The notes under the pieces were generated by a model. The model saw only the letters and a list, made by a program, of their open reading frames with translations. It was not told the origin of the DNA and ran no database searches. The translations under genes and the position numbers were made by a program. Shown in pieces: positions 37,180 through 55,966 of a stretch of 64,000 bases of DNA. Numbering within the stretch: position 1 is the first letter of the stretch; every line of letters begins with the position of its first letter. This DNA is from Fidelibacterota bacterium (lineage in GTDB: Bacteria; Pseudomonadota; Alphaproteobacteria; Rhodospirillales; Rhodospirillaceae): assembly GCA_947475895.1 (NCBI GenBank), contig CANJMF010000003.1:124001-188000 (forward strand), in the 5' to 3' direction.

Positions 37180-37776
37180 ATGGCGTCCTCTTCCCAGCGC
37201 TGCACGGCCTTCGCCGGCCCCAAATTGGTAACAAGCGGGGCTTTGGCCGATGTGGCTGCCGATGTGAAGCCGCTCATTCAACCCGGCGCACCCGAGTCCG
37301 TCCTGATCTTCGACGACGCGACGGGTGCCGTGATCGATGTGGATTTTCGCGGCACCGTCGCCGATGTGCGCGCGCGGCTCGACAGCGCGCCGCCGTCCGA
37401 TGTCGTCGCAGCACCCCCACCGCAAGGCCCAGGGCGGCCCAAGCTCGGCGTTGTCGCGCGCGAGGTGACCTTGCTCCCGCGCCATTGGGAGTGGCTTAAG
37501 TGCCAGCCCGGCGGCGCGTCCGTGACGCTACGCAAGCTCGTGGACGAAGCGCGCCGGACTGGCGGTGACAAGGATCAGCGCCGCCAATCGCAGGAAGCCG
37601 CCTATCGCTTTATGGCGGCCATGCTCGGCAACGAGGCGGGCTTTGAGGAAGCGGCGCGGGCGCTGTTTCGCGGCGATGCTGCAGGCTTCAACGACCTCAC
37701 CGAATCCTGGCCCGTCGGCTTTCGCAATTATGCCCGCAAGCTTGCGGCGGGCGCTCTCGTGCCTGAAGGTGCCTGA
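37180..37776 (+). CDS. DUF2239 family protein
   Basis: A 198-residue cytoplasmic protein with ribosome site AAGGAG (37166-37171, 8 nt from ATG). Blocks typical of DUF2239 are LIFDDATGAVIDVDFRGT, GRPKLGVVAREVTLLPRHWEWL and a helical second half with SVTLRKLVDEARR and ESWPVGFRNYARKLA. The GPGRPKLGVVAREVTLLPRHW part resembles a DNA-binding or ribbon-helix-helix-like element. Function unknown. The promoter carries a prominent inverted repeat. Confidence 0.87.
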   Translation: MASSSQRCTAFAGPKLVTSGALADVAADVKPLIQPGAPESVLIFDDATGAVIDVDFRGTVADVRARLDSAPPSDVVAAPPPQGPGRPKLGVVAREVTLLPRHWEWLKCQPGGASVTLRKLVDEARRTGGDKDQRRQSQEAAYRFMAAMLGNEAGFEEAARALFRGDAAGFNDLTESWPVGFRNYARKLAAGALVPEGA

Positions 37777-37824: not shown

Positions 37825-37912
37825 TAAGTTCATGGGCTCGTTTGTATTTTAGTTAACCTCTTGATGTACTTCTACAAACGCCCGATTGGACCATAAGTTC
37901 ATGGGGTCGTTT
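37825..37912 (+). repeat. Paired 19-nt repeat, pair 1 (69 bp offset)
   Basis: TAAGTTCATGGGCTCGTTT at 37825-37843 is repeated with one change (TAAGTTCATGGGGTCGTTT) at 37894-37912, exactly 69 bp on. The intervening 50 bases are not repeated. The same motif occurs as a second pair with the same 69 bp offset, inverted, at 51170-51258. The second copy ends 23 nt before the HAD gene start. Confidence 0.9.
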
Positions 37913-51167: not shown

Positions 51168-51169
51168 GG

Positions 51170-51258
51170 AACGAGCCCATGAACTTATGAATCGCGACCC
51201 CCTAGTCGGTTGATTCCAAAGGCGTTTTCGCGCTGGCAAACGAGCCCATGAACTTATG
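51170..51258 (-). repeat. Paired 19-nt repeat, pair 2 (69 bp offset)
   Basis: AACGAGCCCATGAACTTATG at 51170-51189 and AAACGAGCCCATGAACTTA at 51239-51256 and flanks are inverse copies of the motif at 37825 and 37894, again offset by exactly 69 bp. The region lies in the 93-bp gap between ligD and convergent dnaE2. The 49-50 bases between the copies differ from those of pair 1. Confidence 0.9.
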
Positions 51259-51260
51259 CC

Positions 51261-54200
51261 TTAATGAAAGTCGCGGCTGATGGGGTCGATCTTCGGCTTT
51301 TTGCGGGTGTAGCCGCCCATGAGATCGCGGGCGGTCGCTTCCACTGAGGTCTCGTCTTCGCTCACGCGTTTGAGCATGGGGCTGAGATCGAAGAGCTGCG
51401 CGGCCACGACGTGAATGACGCCGTCCGCCTGCTGTACTTTGCCGCAGCACGCCAGAAGATCGCTGCCCATGATGATGCTGCGGTGGGCTTCGAACACATC
51501 CGACCATACGACCAGATTGGCGGTGGCGGTTTCGTCCTCCATGGTCACGAACACGATGCCGCTCGCCGTGCCAGGACGCTGGCGTACTAACACGAGCCCT
51601 GCAATGCGCACGAAGTCGCCGTTGCGTTTAGTCTTCAGGACATCGAGCGACGACCACTTTTGGCGGGCTAAATCATCGCGGATAAATTTGAGCGGATGAT
51701 CGCGCAGCGAAAAAGACAGCGTTGCATAATCTTCGGCCACTTCGCCGCCGCGTGTCAGTGGGGCTAGCGCGACCTCGGGCTCGATGATTTCGGGTTGGTG
51801 CACGCCTTGATGTTCGATAGCCGCAAACAACGGCAGGGGCGTATCGCGCAGCGGCTTCACGCTCCACAAAGCGTGGCGGCGATCAAATTCCATCCCGGCG
51901 AAGGCGTCGGCTTCCGCGAGGCATTTCATCTGCCGGGCGGAGATGCCGCTGCGCCGCCACACGTCGTGGGGCGTTTCGTAAGGGACGTGGCGGTTGGCGA
52001 CGATGCTGTCGGCCGCGTCTTCCGTCACGCCTTTGATGACGCCAAAACCCAGACGCACCGCGCACATCTTTCCGTCGCCGGGTTCCAGTGTGCAATCCCA
52101 TTGGCTGGCGTTCATGTCGACGGGCAGAACCTCGACGCCGTGCTGGCGCGCGTCCCTGATCAACTGCGCGGGTGCATAGAACCCCATGGGCTGCGCATTG
52201 AGGATCGCGCAGAGGAACACATCAGGGTGGTGGCATTTGATCCAGGCCGAGGCGTTCACCAGAATGGCGAAGGACGCGGCGTGGCTTTCAGGGAAGCCAT
52301 AGGTGCCGAATCCTTCGATCTGGTGGAAACAGCGCTCGGCGAAGCTTTTCTCGTAGCCGTTCTTCTCCATGCCGTCGATGAAGCGTTCGCGGAAGGAACT
52401 CACTTTGCCGTCGTTGCGAAAGGTTGCCATGGCGCGGCGCAGCTTGTCGGCTTCGCTGGGTGTGAAGTTGGCGCCGACGATGGCGATCTGCATGGCTTGT
52501 TCCTGAAACAGCGGCACGCCCATGGTGCGTTTCAGAACGGCTTCCAATTCACGCTTAGGATCTTCTTTCCCGAAGCGCAGCGGGTACGTCATTGGCTCAA
52601 TGCCTTGCCGCCGGCGCAAATAGGGATGCACCATGTCGCCCTGAATGGGCCCCGGGCGCACAATCGCCACTTCCACCACCAGGTCGTAATATTCGCGCGG
52701 CTTCAGGCGCGGGAGCATGCTCATCTGCGCGCGGCTTTCCACTTGGAAAACGCCGATACTGTCGGCCTTGCACAGCATGTCGTAAACCGCAGGATCATCC
52801 GTCGGCAGGGAAGCGATGGTCGCGCTGATGCCTTTGCGGCTGCGCAACAGATCGAAGGAGCGCCGCAAGCAACCCAACATGCCGAGGCCGAGAATATCGA
52901 CCTTCATCATGTGTAAGGTTTCAATGTCGTCCTTGTCCCATTCGATGACGGTGCGGTCTGCCATGCTGGCATTCTCGATGGGGACAAGATCGTCGAGGCG
53001 GTCTTTGGTGATGACGAAACCGCCGGGGTGTTGAGAGAGATGACGCGGAAAACCGATCAGCTCTTTCGAAAGCTCCAGGCACAGGCGCAACCGCCAGTCG
53101 TTAGGGTCGAGCCCCAATTCGCGGGCACGTGCTTCACCGACGCCGCTGTTGCTCCAGCCCCATACGGCGCCCACAAGCGACGCCGCCACATCCTCGGAGA
53201 AACCCAGGGCCTTGCCCACATCGCGCACGGCCCGGCGCGAGCGGTAGTGAATGACGGTGGCGGTGAGGGCCGCGTGGTCGCGGTCGTATTCTTTGTAAAT
53301 CCACTGGATGACTTCCTCGCGCCGCTCGTGCTCGAAGTCGACGTCGATGTCGGGCGGTTCGCCGCGATCCTCGCTGATGAAACGCTCGAACAAGCCGAGA
53401 TTGATGGCGGGATTGATCTCGGTGATGCCGAGGCAATAGCACACGGCGGAGTTGGCGGCGCTGCCGCGCCCTTGGCATAAGATGCCTTTCGACCGGGCGA
53501 CTTTCACGATGCGCCACACGGTCAGGAAATAGGGCGCGTACTTTAATTTACCTATGATGTTGAGTTCATAGGCGAGCTGTTTTTGCACCTTCTCGGGCAC
53601 GTCGCCGGAATAGCGCCAGGCCGCACCTTCGTAGGTCGCCTTTTCCAAGCCTTCATGGGCGGTAAGGCCGGGGAAGAAGTTCTCGTCCGGATATTGGTAT
53701 TTCAGTTCGTCCAGCCGGAACGTGCAGCGGGCCATGATTTCCGTCGTGCGCGCGACCGCTTCCGGATAGCGCGCAAACAAGCGCGCCATTTCCGCGGGTG
53801 GTTTGAAGAAACGATCCGCCGAACGCTCGCGTTCAAAGCCCAAGGTATCGATCGTCTTACCCACGCGAATACACGTCATCACATCGTGCAACATGCGGCG
53901 CGCCGGGCCGTGATAGAGCACGTCGTTGGTGATCACCGTGGGCACGCGCGTTTCCTGTGCCAGTTGGAACAACGCATCGAGGCGTTCGACTTCGTTGGGG
54001 CGGAAGCGGCGGGAGAGGGCCAGATAACAGTGACGCGGAAAATCGGCGCGCAGTTTTTCCAAGCGCGTGCGTAAGGCCTCGGTGACTTCATCGCCGAGGG
54101 CAATGAAAATCTGTCCTTCACCGTGGGCGACCACGTCGTCATAGCTAAGGTGACATTGGCCTTTGGGCGCACGGCGTTTGCCCAGCGTGAGCAACCGAAC

Positions 54201-54464
54201 GAGGCGGCTATAGGCCGCGCGGTTTTGCGGATAGCACAGCAGGGATGAACCATCGGTCAAATCCAACCGGCAGCCGATGATCAAGCGCAGTTTGAAGTGC
54301 TCTGCCGCGTCGTGGGCTTTGACGATGCCGGCCACGCTGTTGCGGTCGACCACGGCAATGGCTTTGAGGCCCAGCACGTGGGCGGCTTCCACCAACTCGC
54401 GCGGATGGGACGCGCCGCGCAGGAAGGAATAGCAGGTACTGACCTGAAGCTCGGCGTAGCTCAT
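51261..54464 (-). CDS. dnaE2: Error-prone DNA polymerase DnaE2
   Basis: Catalytic polymerase of the SOS mutasome, 1067 residues from ATG 54464 (MSYAELQVSTCYSFLRGASHP). The N-terminal PHP domain, the polymerase aspartates in PDIDVDFEHERREEVIQWIY, the LSQHPGGFVI block and the C-terminal OB fold (GLVLVRQRPGTASGIVFVTMEDETA) are all visible. Its start overlaps the imuB stop by 4 nt. The frame continues to 55643, but that part is antisense-like out-of-frame imuB sequence. Confidence 0.96.
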   Translation of the reverse strand: MSYAELQVSTCYSFLRGASHPRELVEAAHVLGLKAIAVVDRNSVAGIVKAHDAAEHFKLRLIIGCRLDLTDGSSLLCYPQNRAAYSRLVRLLTLGKRRAPKGQCHLSYDDVVAHGEGQIFIALGDEVTEALRTRLEKLRADFPRHCYLALSRRFRPNEVERLDALFQLAQETRVPTVITNDVLYHGPARRMLHDVMTCIRVGKTIDTLGFERERSADRFFKPPAEMARLFARYPEAVARTTEIMARCTFRLDELKYQYPDENFFPGLTAHEGLEKATYEGAAWRYSGDVPEKVQKQLAYELNIIGKLKYAPYFLTVWRIVKVARSKGILCQGRGSAANSAVCYCLGITEINPAINLGLFERFISEDRGEPPDIDVDFEHERREEVIQWIYKEYDRDHAALTATVIHYRSRRAVRDVGKALGFSEDVAASLVGAVWGWSNSGVGEARARELGLDPNDWRLRLCLELSKELIGFPRHLSQHPGGFVITKDRLDDLVPIENASMADRTVIEWDKDDIETLHMMKVDILGLGMLGCLRRSFDLLRSRKGISATIASLPTDDPAVYDMLCKADSIGVFQVESRAQMSMLPRLKPREYYDLVVEVAIVRPGPIQGDMVHPYLRRRQGIEPMTYPLRFGKEDPKRELEAVLKRTMGVPLFQEQAMQIAIVGANFTPSEADKLRRAMATFRNDGKVSSFRERFIDGMEKNGYEKSFAERCFHQIEGFGTYGFPESHAASFAILVNASAWIKCHHPDVFLCAILNAQPMGFYAPAQLIRDARQHGVEVLPVDMNASQWDCTLEPGDGKMCAVRLGFGVIKGVTEDAADSIVANRHVPYETPHDVWRRSGISARQMKCLAEADAFAGMEFDRRHALWSVKPLRDTPLPLFAAIEHQGVHQPEIIEPEVALAPLTRGGEVAEDYATLSFSLRDHPLKFIRDDLARQKWSSLDVLKTKRNGDFVRIAGLVLVRQRPGTASGIVFVTMEDETATANLVVWSDVFEAHRSIIMGSDLLACCGKVQQADGVIHVVAAQLFDLSPMLKRVSEDETSVEATARDLMGGYTRKKPKIDPISRDFH

Positions 54465-55966
54465 GCGAACACGCCGTGCAGATACCAGCGGTAGGTTTGC
54501 TCGGGCGTCAGGCGGTTGTCGCGGAACAGCCAGAAGCGTTCGCCGCTTTCGTCCTCGATGCGGAAGTAATCGCGCACTTCGCCGACTTCTTTTTTGTCGT
54601 GCCACCATTCGCCGAGGATGCGCTCGGGGCCGTCGGCGCAGCGCACTTTGCGGGTTTCGCCGCGCCACGAAAAAAGCGCCGGGGGATAATCGGGCAGCAA
54701 CGCCGTGACATTCACCAACTCCGGCGGCGACAACAAGCGCACCGGGCGTGGTAAATGCGCGGGCCAGGTGACGGAGATGTTCGTCGTGGGCGCGACCTTT
54801 TCCACAGCGCGTTCGGGAAGGTCGCTTTCCACTGCCGCCACGCGCCACACGTTGCGTGCACCGATACGATTGCCGATGCGATCCACCAATGCTGCGAGGT
54901 CGTGGGCTTCGTCGGCCGCGCTGGCTTCGGTGTCCATCTGACGCGGCGCGAGGGCCGCGATGCGCCATCCTGTGAGGGTCGCGATTTCGATGCCGAAGCC
55001 GGGATCGACGGTATCGAGTTTTTCCAGCAACAGCTTGGACAGGTGCACTGGGTCGCGCGAGGGGCGTGCTGTGCCGACGCGCACAATTTGCAATGTGTTG
55101 TCGGCGCGTTGAAAGACGAGATCGAGCCGACGCGCGCCTTCCTGGGTTTTCTCCAAATCCGCGCACAGATCGTCCGTGAGCTTGTGGACGGTGCGCTGCA
55201 AGTCTTCCAACGCCGCGATGGGCTCGGCGAACGTGAGGACGCGCTGTTTGGCGGCGGGCGGCAAAATGGCATCGAGGGATTCGGGCAAGAAGCCCAGCGC
55301 CTGATCCAACCGCTTCAATGTGTCTACGCCGTAGCGTACGGGGATCGTTTTGCGCGGCAGCTTGCGCAGGGCGCCGATGGTTTTTACGCCCACGCGCCAC
55401 AAGCCGTCGGCGGTCTCGGGTATGATGCGCAAGGCCGTGACCGGCAGCGCATTGAGTTCGCCAAGTCCATCCGCCACGGTGATTCTGTGTGCGCCGAAAT
55501 GGGACCATGCCCACGCCGCGCCCGGCGTGTGCGCCATGGCGATGCGGGCTGTCAGGTGATTCTTGGAGAAGATCGCGGCGATCTTCTCCAGCATCGCCGT
55601 CTCGCCCTGAAACAGATGCGCGACACCGGTGGCGTCGATCCACAGTCCATCGGGCGGGCAGGGCGATACGAACGGACTAAAGCGCAGACACCACACCGCC
55701 AGTTTGTAGAGGGCGCGCGCGTCTTCGGCGGGCTCGGCCGGAGCGACGTGCAGGTGGGGGAAAATCGCGCGCGCGTGGGAGACCGGCATGCCCGGCATGA
55801 TGCCTTCGTCGGCCGCAGCCGGGTTCACGGCCAGCACGGTGTGCTGACGGCTTTCCAGGTCGGCGATGACGAACGGCTTATCCTGCCAAGCGATGGGCGG
55901 GACGGAACGCTTCGCCCGTGCTTCGATCTGCCAGTTGGGAAGAAAAACCGAGATAACCCTGCGCAT
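54461..55966 (-). CDS. imuB: ImuB, Y-family polymerase-like mutasome protein
   Basis: Links DnaE2 to the beta clamp during mutagenic repair; family members are catalytically inactive. From ATG 55966 (MRRVISVFLPNWQIEARAK) it has 501 residues. The Y-family acidic residues are missing: SVFLPNWQIEA replaces the first DxD-type motif and LWIDATGVAHLF replaces the SxDE motif. The C-terminal region binds partners (FWLFRDNRLTPEQTYRWYLHGVFA). Start context overlaps imuA by 89 nt. Confidence 0.94.
   Translation of the reverse strand: MRRVISVFLPNWQIEARAKRSVPPIAWQDKPFVIADLESRQHTVLAVNPAAADEGIMPGMPVSHARAIFPHLHVAPAEPAEDARALYKLAVWCLRFSPFVSPCPPDGLWIDATGVAHLFQGETAMLEKIAAIFSKNHLTARIAMAHTPGAAWAWSHFGAHRITVADGLGELNALPVTALRIIPETADGLWRVGVKTIGALRKLPRKTIPVRYGVDTLKRLDQALGFLPESLDAILPPAAKQRVLTFAEPIAALEDLQRTVHKLTDDLCADLEKTQEGARRLDLVFQRADNTLQIVRVGTARPSRDPVHLSKLLLEKLDTVDPGFGIEIATLTGWRIAALAPRQMDTEASAADEAHDLAALVDRIGNRIGARNVWRVAAVESDLPERAVEKVAPTTNISVTWPAHLPRPVRLLSPPELVNVTALLPDYPPALFSWRGETRKVRCADGPERILGEWWHDKKEVGEVRDYFRIEDESGERFWLFRDNRLTPEQTYRWYLHGVFA

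What the first reader, a model, noticed from the sequence alone, without database searches (positions are those of the whole stretch)
37825..37912. Two copies of a 19-nt motif with an identical 69-bp offset form an unnamed paired repeat element
TAAGTTCATGGG[C/G]TCGTTT lies at 37825-37843 and 37894-37912. The same pair occurs inverted at 51170-51258, again exactly 69 bp apart. The 50 bases between the two copies are not conserved between pairs, yet the length is. That points to two protein-binding or pairing sites held at fixed spacing rather than a copied block. 69 is also divisible by 3. Both pairs sit in intergenic gaps.
Basis: seen in the sequence. Interest (0 to 1): 0.82.

Follow-up and report, generated by a model that had tools for sequence, protein, structure and literature searches.

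The report
Paired repeat flanking IHF-like DNA site
A 19-letter DNA motif occurs 20 times in this bacterium as a pair exactly 69 letters apart, usually just after the ends of genes, with what looks like a binding site for the DNA-bending protein IHF between the copies, so it is probably a scattered protein-docking element related in design to the BIME/RIB repeats of E. coli.

Summary
The genome holds 20 pairs of TAAGTTCATGGG[C/G]TCGTTT, all tandem and all exactly 69 bp apart. Relatives of the same genus lack the motif, and at hisS-prfA all 17 relatives examined have almost no gap, so the elements are insertions. Across 40 copies the motif barely varies (about 0.6% departures at 16 positions), while the 50-bp spacer averages 47% identity yet never changes length. 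The spacer is not meaningless: it carries an IHF-consensus-like site in its middle (10/20 with at most one mismatch; 0.9 expected). A sister genus carries the same core in pairs (58, 68 or 69 bp, with that site) and four-copy arrays (27-28-29 or 37-28-30 bp, without it). Two spacing differences equal about one helical turn. Fifteen of 20 elements lie within 16 bp of a stop codon. Best reading: a looped nucleoprotein element built like E. coli BIME-1/RIB, but with direct, non-palindromic end motifs and no REP transposase in the sister genus. The motif-binding protein, IHF binding itself and the cellular role are untested. Rated a new variant of a known kind.

The parts
37825..37843 (+). Pair A, motif copy 1 (TAAGTTCATGGGCTCGTTT)
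   Evidence: exact match
37854..37866 (-). Pair A, IHF-like site CATCAAGAGGTTA (one mismatch to WATCARNNNNTTR), orientation as in the sister genus
   Evidence: consensus scan against shuffles and flanks
37894..37912 (+). Pair A, motif copy 2 (TAAGTTCATGGGGTCGTTT), 69 bp from copy 1
   Evidence: exact match
51238..51256 (-). Pair B, motif copy 1 (TAAGTTCATGGGCTCGTTT)
   Evidence: exact match
51203..51215 (-). Pair B, IHF-like site AATCAACCGACTA (one mismatch), opposite orientation to that of pair A within its element
   Evidence: consensus scan; conserved position 42-54 of most G000 elements
51169..51187 (-). Pair B, motif copy 2 (TAAGTTCATGGGCTCGTTC), 69 bp from copy 1
   Evidence: one mismatch
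37180..37776 (+). Gene upstream of pair A (DUF2239), stop 48 bp before the element
   Evidence: ORF, Pfam PF09998
37936..40398 (+). Gene downstream of pair A (N-terminal haloacid dehalogenase-like domain)
   Evidence: ORF, Pfam PF00702
49386..51167 (+). DNA ligase D gene, convergent, stop 1 bp before pair B
   Evidence: ORF, TIGR02776 over cut-off
51261..55643 (-). Error-prone DNA polymerase (DnaE2-type) gene, convergent, stop 4 bp beyond pair B
   Evidence: ORF, NF004225 over cut-off

Best explanation
Each element (88 bp, or about 93 bp with its conserved flanks) is a dispersed intergenic nucleoprotein site. IHF, or another HU/IHF-family protein, binds the middle and bends it sharply. An unidentified protein binds the two end motifs, and the bend brings the two bound copies together at a fixed helical phase. 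The elements reached their places by insertion, mostly right behind stop codons. Their end motifs are kept by selection after insertion, because they are nearly invariant while the spacers drift. The likeliest role is that of E. coli BIME-1/RIB repeats: a local DNA-topology or transcription-boundary element at 3' gene ends. SHOWN: copy number, exact spacing, insertion at hisS-prfA, motif constancy against spacer drift, 3'-end location, a statistically strong IHF-consensus site in the spacer, and IHF alpha and beta genes in the genome. INFERRED: IHF binding, a second motif-binding protein, the loop, selection, and the cellular role.
For: All 20 pairs are 69 bp apart. Motif departures are 4 in 640 cells, while spacers average 47% identity. 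IHF consensus with at most 1 mismatch: 10/20 spacers (shuffle mean 0.9, maximum 5) against 1/20 and 0/20 in flanks; in 22 further pairs (sister genus and G000 subfamily) 19/22 (mean 2.0, maximum 7), 11 of them exact, at a fixed position; 0/29 in four-copy arrays. IHF alpha and beta genes pass curated cut-offs. Pair spacings 58 and 69 and array spacings 27 and 37 differ by 11 and 10 bp. 15/20 elements lie within 16 bp of a stop codon; 1/20 lies between divergent genes, against 15 of 52 gaps in the window. Insertion: 17/17 relatives have a near-zero hisS-prfA gap, and 10/18 have 17-32 bp at gmk-rsmA against 120 bp here.
Against: No binding data. In the main G000 subtype the site lies in the opposite orientation to that in the sister genus, and its last three bases usually depart from the E. 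coli consensus. The helical-turn argument rests on two comparisons, each possibly one founder event. No candidate for the motif-binding protein was found. Near-identical motifs could also come from gene conversion or from a copying mechanism.
Confidence: 0.5

Rival explanations
1. Selfish miniature mobile element: the two motifs are ends recognised by a recombinase or transposase acting in trans, IHF helps bring them together, and the 3'-end location only reflects tolerated insertion sites.
For: Copies are insertions absent from relatives. The distribution is patchy: one of 19 genomes in its genus and six of seven in the sister genus. REPINs likewise have conserved ends, a less conserved spacer and constant distances (PMC3116915).
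Against: The motif stays intact in copies whose spacers are far diverged, and few half-decayed copies exist. No target-site duplication was seen. RAYT transposases are absent from all seven sister-genus genomes, and the single G000 RAYT is not flanked by the motif.
Confidence: 0.3
2. Regulatory operator pairs: a transcription factor binds the two sites and controls neighbouring promoters through a loop.
For: Two near-identical sites at fixed helical spacing around an IHF-like site is a known operator design (general knowledge); 8 of 20 elements lie between co-directional genes.
Against: Seven elements lie between convergent genes and only one between divergent genes. Neighbours are unrelated genes, many of them housekeeping. 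Elements are absent at the same genes in relatives.
Confidence: 0.1
3. RNA element: a terminator, mRNA stabiliser or small RNA in which the two copies pair.
For: AGTTCATGGGCT can pair with itself if G-U pairs are allowed, giving a 12-bp stem in some elements. Sister-genus elements are sometimes followed by perfect hairpins.
Against: The alignment fold is dominated by a covariation penalty, and the inner part has no consensus fold. The C/G position breaks the stem in 16/20 elements. No Rfam match at gathering score.
Confidence: 0.07

Closest known systems
E. coli BIME-1 / RIB elements (Boccard and Prentki 1993, as cited in PMC2817692)
   Same: About 100 bp, dispersed, intergenic, at 3' ends of transcription units; two copies of an end motif around an IHF site.
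   Different: BIME-1 ends are palindromic REPs in opposite orientation. Here the ends are direct, not strongly palindromic, and of unrelated sequence; IHF binding is predicted only.
REPINs (PMC3116915)
   Same: Conserved ends, less conserved spacer, constant distance, extragenic.
   Different: REPIN ends are inverted and form a hairpin, and are linked to a RAYT gene. Here they are direct, have no conserved hairpin and have no RAYT link.
CGTC-tagged REPs of Alphaproteobacteria (PMC3733652)
   Same: Dispersed extragenic repeats, often dimers, without a dedicated transposase.
   Different: Palindromic with a CGTC tag, and head-to-tail dimers are negligible there. Here head-to-tail pairs are the rule and the sequence differs.
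G+C-rich inverted REP-like family of sister species (CCCTCCCC...GGGGAGGGTTAGGGAGGGGTCGTT)
   Same: Ends in GGGGTCGTT, the same end as the motif here; intergenic; often paired.
   Different: Strong hairpins, inverted pairs with variable spacing; not found in G000 with the pattern used. Common descent is suggested, not shown.

Membership tests
BIME-1 / RIB | Two end motifs at near-constant distance | tested here: met
   20/20 at 69 bp
BIME-1 / RIB | IHF site between the ends | tested here: inconclusive
   Strong consensus enrichment; binding not tested
BIME-1 / RIB | Location at 3' ends of transcription units | tested here: met
   15/20 within 16 bp of a stop codon; transcription units inferred from ORFs only
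BIME-1 / RIB | Ends are REP palindromes in opposite orientation | tested here: not met
   Tandem in 20/20; only an imperfect wobble palindrome
REPIN / RAYT-linked REP | RAYT (Y1_Tnp) gene in the genome, flanked by the repeat | tested here: not met
   0/7 sister-genus genomes encode Y1_Tnp; the G000 RAYT locus and 11 related loci carry no motif
REPIN / RAYT-linked REP | Inverted ends that form a hairpin | tested here: not met
   Direct repeats, no consensus hairpin
CGTC- or GTAG-tagged REP | Tagged 20-40 bp palindrome | tested here: not met
   Neither tag with a palindrome in the consensus
MITE | Terminal inverted repeats and target-site duplication | tested here: not met
   Ends are direct; flank matches are no longer than in cross-paired flanks
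Rfam RNA families | Match at gathering score | tested here: not met
   Only a tRNA in the window

The most novel reading that the evidence does not exclude
A new class of dispersed DNA-looping element in this bacterial family: a lineage-specific DNA-binding protein reads the core CATGGG[C/G]TCGTT and assembles fixed-geometry complexes, either two sites across an IHF bend or four sites about 28 bp apart without one, placed behind genes to organise the chromosome or insulate transcription.
Probability: 0.3. Interest if true: 0.8.

Novelty: new variant of a known kind. Interest (0 to 1): 0.6.

Why it matters
What the IHF-containing repeats of E. coli do is still debated (general knowledge). A second, apparently unrelated repeat system with the same plan (two end motifs, IHF-like centre, 3' gene ends) but without strong palindromes or a REP transposase would suggest that the nucleoprotein geometry, not the hairpin, is what selection keeps. 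Two architectures in one genus and spacing steps of about one helical turn make this testable in simple DNA-binding and looping assays.

Tried and rejected
RAYT/REPIN membership: rejected, because no Y1_Tnp is present in sister-genus genomes and no motif flanks any RAYT locus examined. RNA structure: not supported. CRISPR-like array: rejected, because elements are dispersed single pairs with related spacers. Plasmid or phage origin: pair A has no match in plasmids and pair B none in phages; the other two combinations were not run. Exact motif in 84,980 genomes and in viral contigs: scattered single hits, 10 and 2, about the number I would expect by chance from collection size. LexA box (GTTC-N7-GTTC, general knowledge): the spacing here is N8 and the sister genus has GTGC, so not followed. 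Coding meaning of 69 = 3x23: unlikely, since 58 and 68 occur. Target-site duplications: none. The C/G position differs between the two copies in 15/20 pairs (permutation p 0.026); noted but not explained. Motif letters in the literature: 10 papers, none on repeats judging by titles.

Full report
OBSERVATION. The motif TAAGTTCATGGG[C/G]TCGTTT lies at 37825-37843 and 37894-37912 (+) and at 51169-51187 and 51238-51256 (-); four hits against 0.02 expected. In the whole 3.30-Mb genome there are 42 hits with up to two mismatches and none for the reversed control. They form 20 pairs, all tandem, all exactly 69 bp apart. One further copy (contig 10) lacks an intact partner, and a second subfamily with GTGCATGGGGTTGTTT occurs at 69 and 67 bp.

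ANATOMY. In the 40 copies only 4 of 640 cells at 16 motif positions depart from consensus (my count). The 50-bp spacers average 47% pairwise identity, with a minimum of 16%. Their consensus is GCCAGCGCGAAAAC...AATCAR-N4-[C/A]TAR.

IHF-LIKE SITE. A scan for WATCARNNNNTTR finds at most one mismatch in 10 of 20 spacers (0.9 expected), against 1 of 20 left and 0 of 20 right flanks. In 22 further pairs, from the sister genus g2 and the G000 subfamily, it is found in 19, 11 of them exact; in the inner parts of four-copy arrays, in 0 of 29. The site is on the + strand at element position 42-54 in most G000 elements. It is on the - strand near 30-42 in most g2 elements, in window pair A and in L036 and L037. 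Taking the usual extent of an IHF footprint (general knowledge), both orientations cover the same stretch, centred near position 42, close to the midpoint between the motifs (44.5). The genome encodes IHF alpha (contig 2, 274813-275076) and IHF beta (contig 20, 10723-10995), both above curated cut-offs.

RELATIVES. None of the 18 same-genus genomes has the motif. A profile search found a related family in another genus of the same family. There the core GTGCATGGGCTCGTT occurs 7-55 times in six of seven genomes; the other genomes sampled from the order have 0-2 hits. Its elements are pairs at 58, 68 or 69 bp with the IHF-like site, four-copy arrays at 27-28-29 bp (intact in G091 and G092, partial in G094 and G095) or 37-28-30 bp (G019), and single copies that often have a variant left copy (TACTCGTTTG). 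The changes 69 to 58 and 27 to 37 are about one helical turn.

INSERTION AND CONTEXT. hisS and prfA are nearly adjacent in all 17 relatives examined, but separated by the element in G000, where TAA of the motif supplies the hisS stop. At gmk-rsmA, 10 of 18 relatives have gaps of 17-32 bp against 120 bp in G000; the other eight have longer gaps, and the three of these that I read carry other sequence. Gene calls by codon usage place 15 of 20 elements within 16 bp of a stop codon, 7 between convergent genes and only 1 between divergent genes. These calls are approximate, because the genome is not annotated.

MECHANISM. Constant length with drifting sequence, near-invariant ends, a centred IHF-like site that keeps its place in either orientation, and spacing steps of about one helical turn together point to a protein-DNA complex on duplex DNA: IHF bends the middle and a second protein holds the two ends. 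RNA pairing does not fit, because no fold is conserved and the C/G position breaks the only common stem in 16 of 20 elements. Low motif decay despite diverged spacers argues for selection after insertion, hence for a host role, although a selfish origin is likely. The role proposed, a topology or transcription boundary at gene ends, is by analogy with BIME/RIB repeats and is the least certain step.

COMPARISON. BIME-1 is two oppositely oriented REPs with IHF binding between them; [quoted passage not shown] REPINs keep constant distances between conserved inverted ends (PMC3116915). Alphaproteobacterial CGTC REPs lack an associated transposase and almost never form head-to-tail dimers (PMC3733652). 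The element works like BIME-1/RIB but fails its orientation and palindrome criteria and the RAYT criterion of REPs. Same-genus relatives have an inverted, G+C-rich hairpin family that ends in the same GGGGTCGTT, which hints at an evolutionary link to REP-like repeats; this was not proved.

LIMITS. No binding or expression data exist. Helical-turn evidence rests on two comparisons. The IHF consensus used is that of E. coli.

Noticed in passing
L165, L166, L174, L167, L182 (genome G019): Arrays in G019 are followed by perfect hairpins with compensatory changes (GGGCTCGACC-CAA-GGTCGAGCCC, GGGCTTGTCC-CAC-GGACAAGCCC) and by short tandem duplications of the hairpin unit.
   Followed up: partly
L314-L333 (genome G016, contig 1, 1-400000): A same-genus species has an abundant inverted, G+C-rich REP-like family, CCCTCCCCTGAAAGGGGAGGGTTAGGGAGGGGTCGTT, which shares its GGGGTCGTT end with the motif; it is also common in G012, G005 and G004.
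   Followed up: partly
L128 1465-2148 (genome G000, contig 11): G000 has a single RAYT-like Y1 transposase gene, just below the NCBIfam REP-associated cut-off; it has no motif copy nearby, and the genus g2 has none at all.
   Followed up: yes
element position 13 in G000 pairs: The variable C/G base of the motif differs between the two copies in 15 of 20 pairs (permutation p 0.026), as if one of each were preferred; no explanation.
   Followed up: partly
window 51261-55643: The DnaE2-type reading frame is 1460 aa, and the polymerase model matches only residues 394-1460, so the first 390 residues may be a fused or misread upstream part.
   Followed up: no
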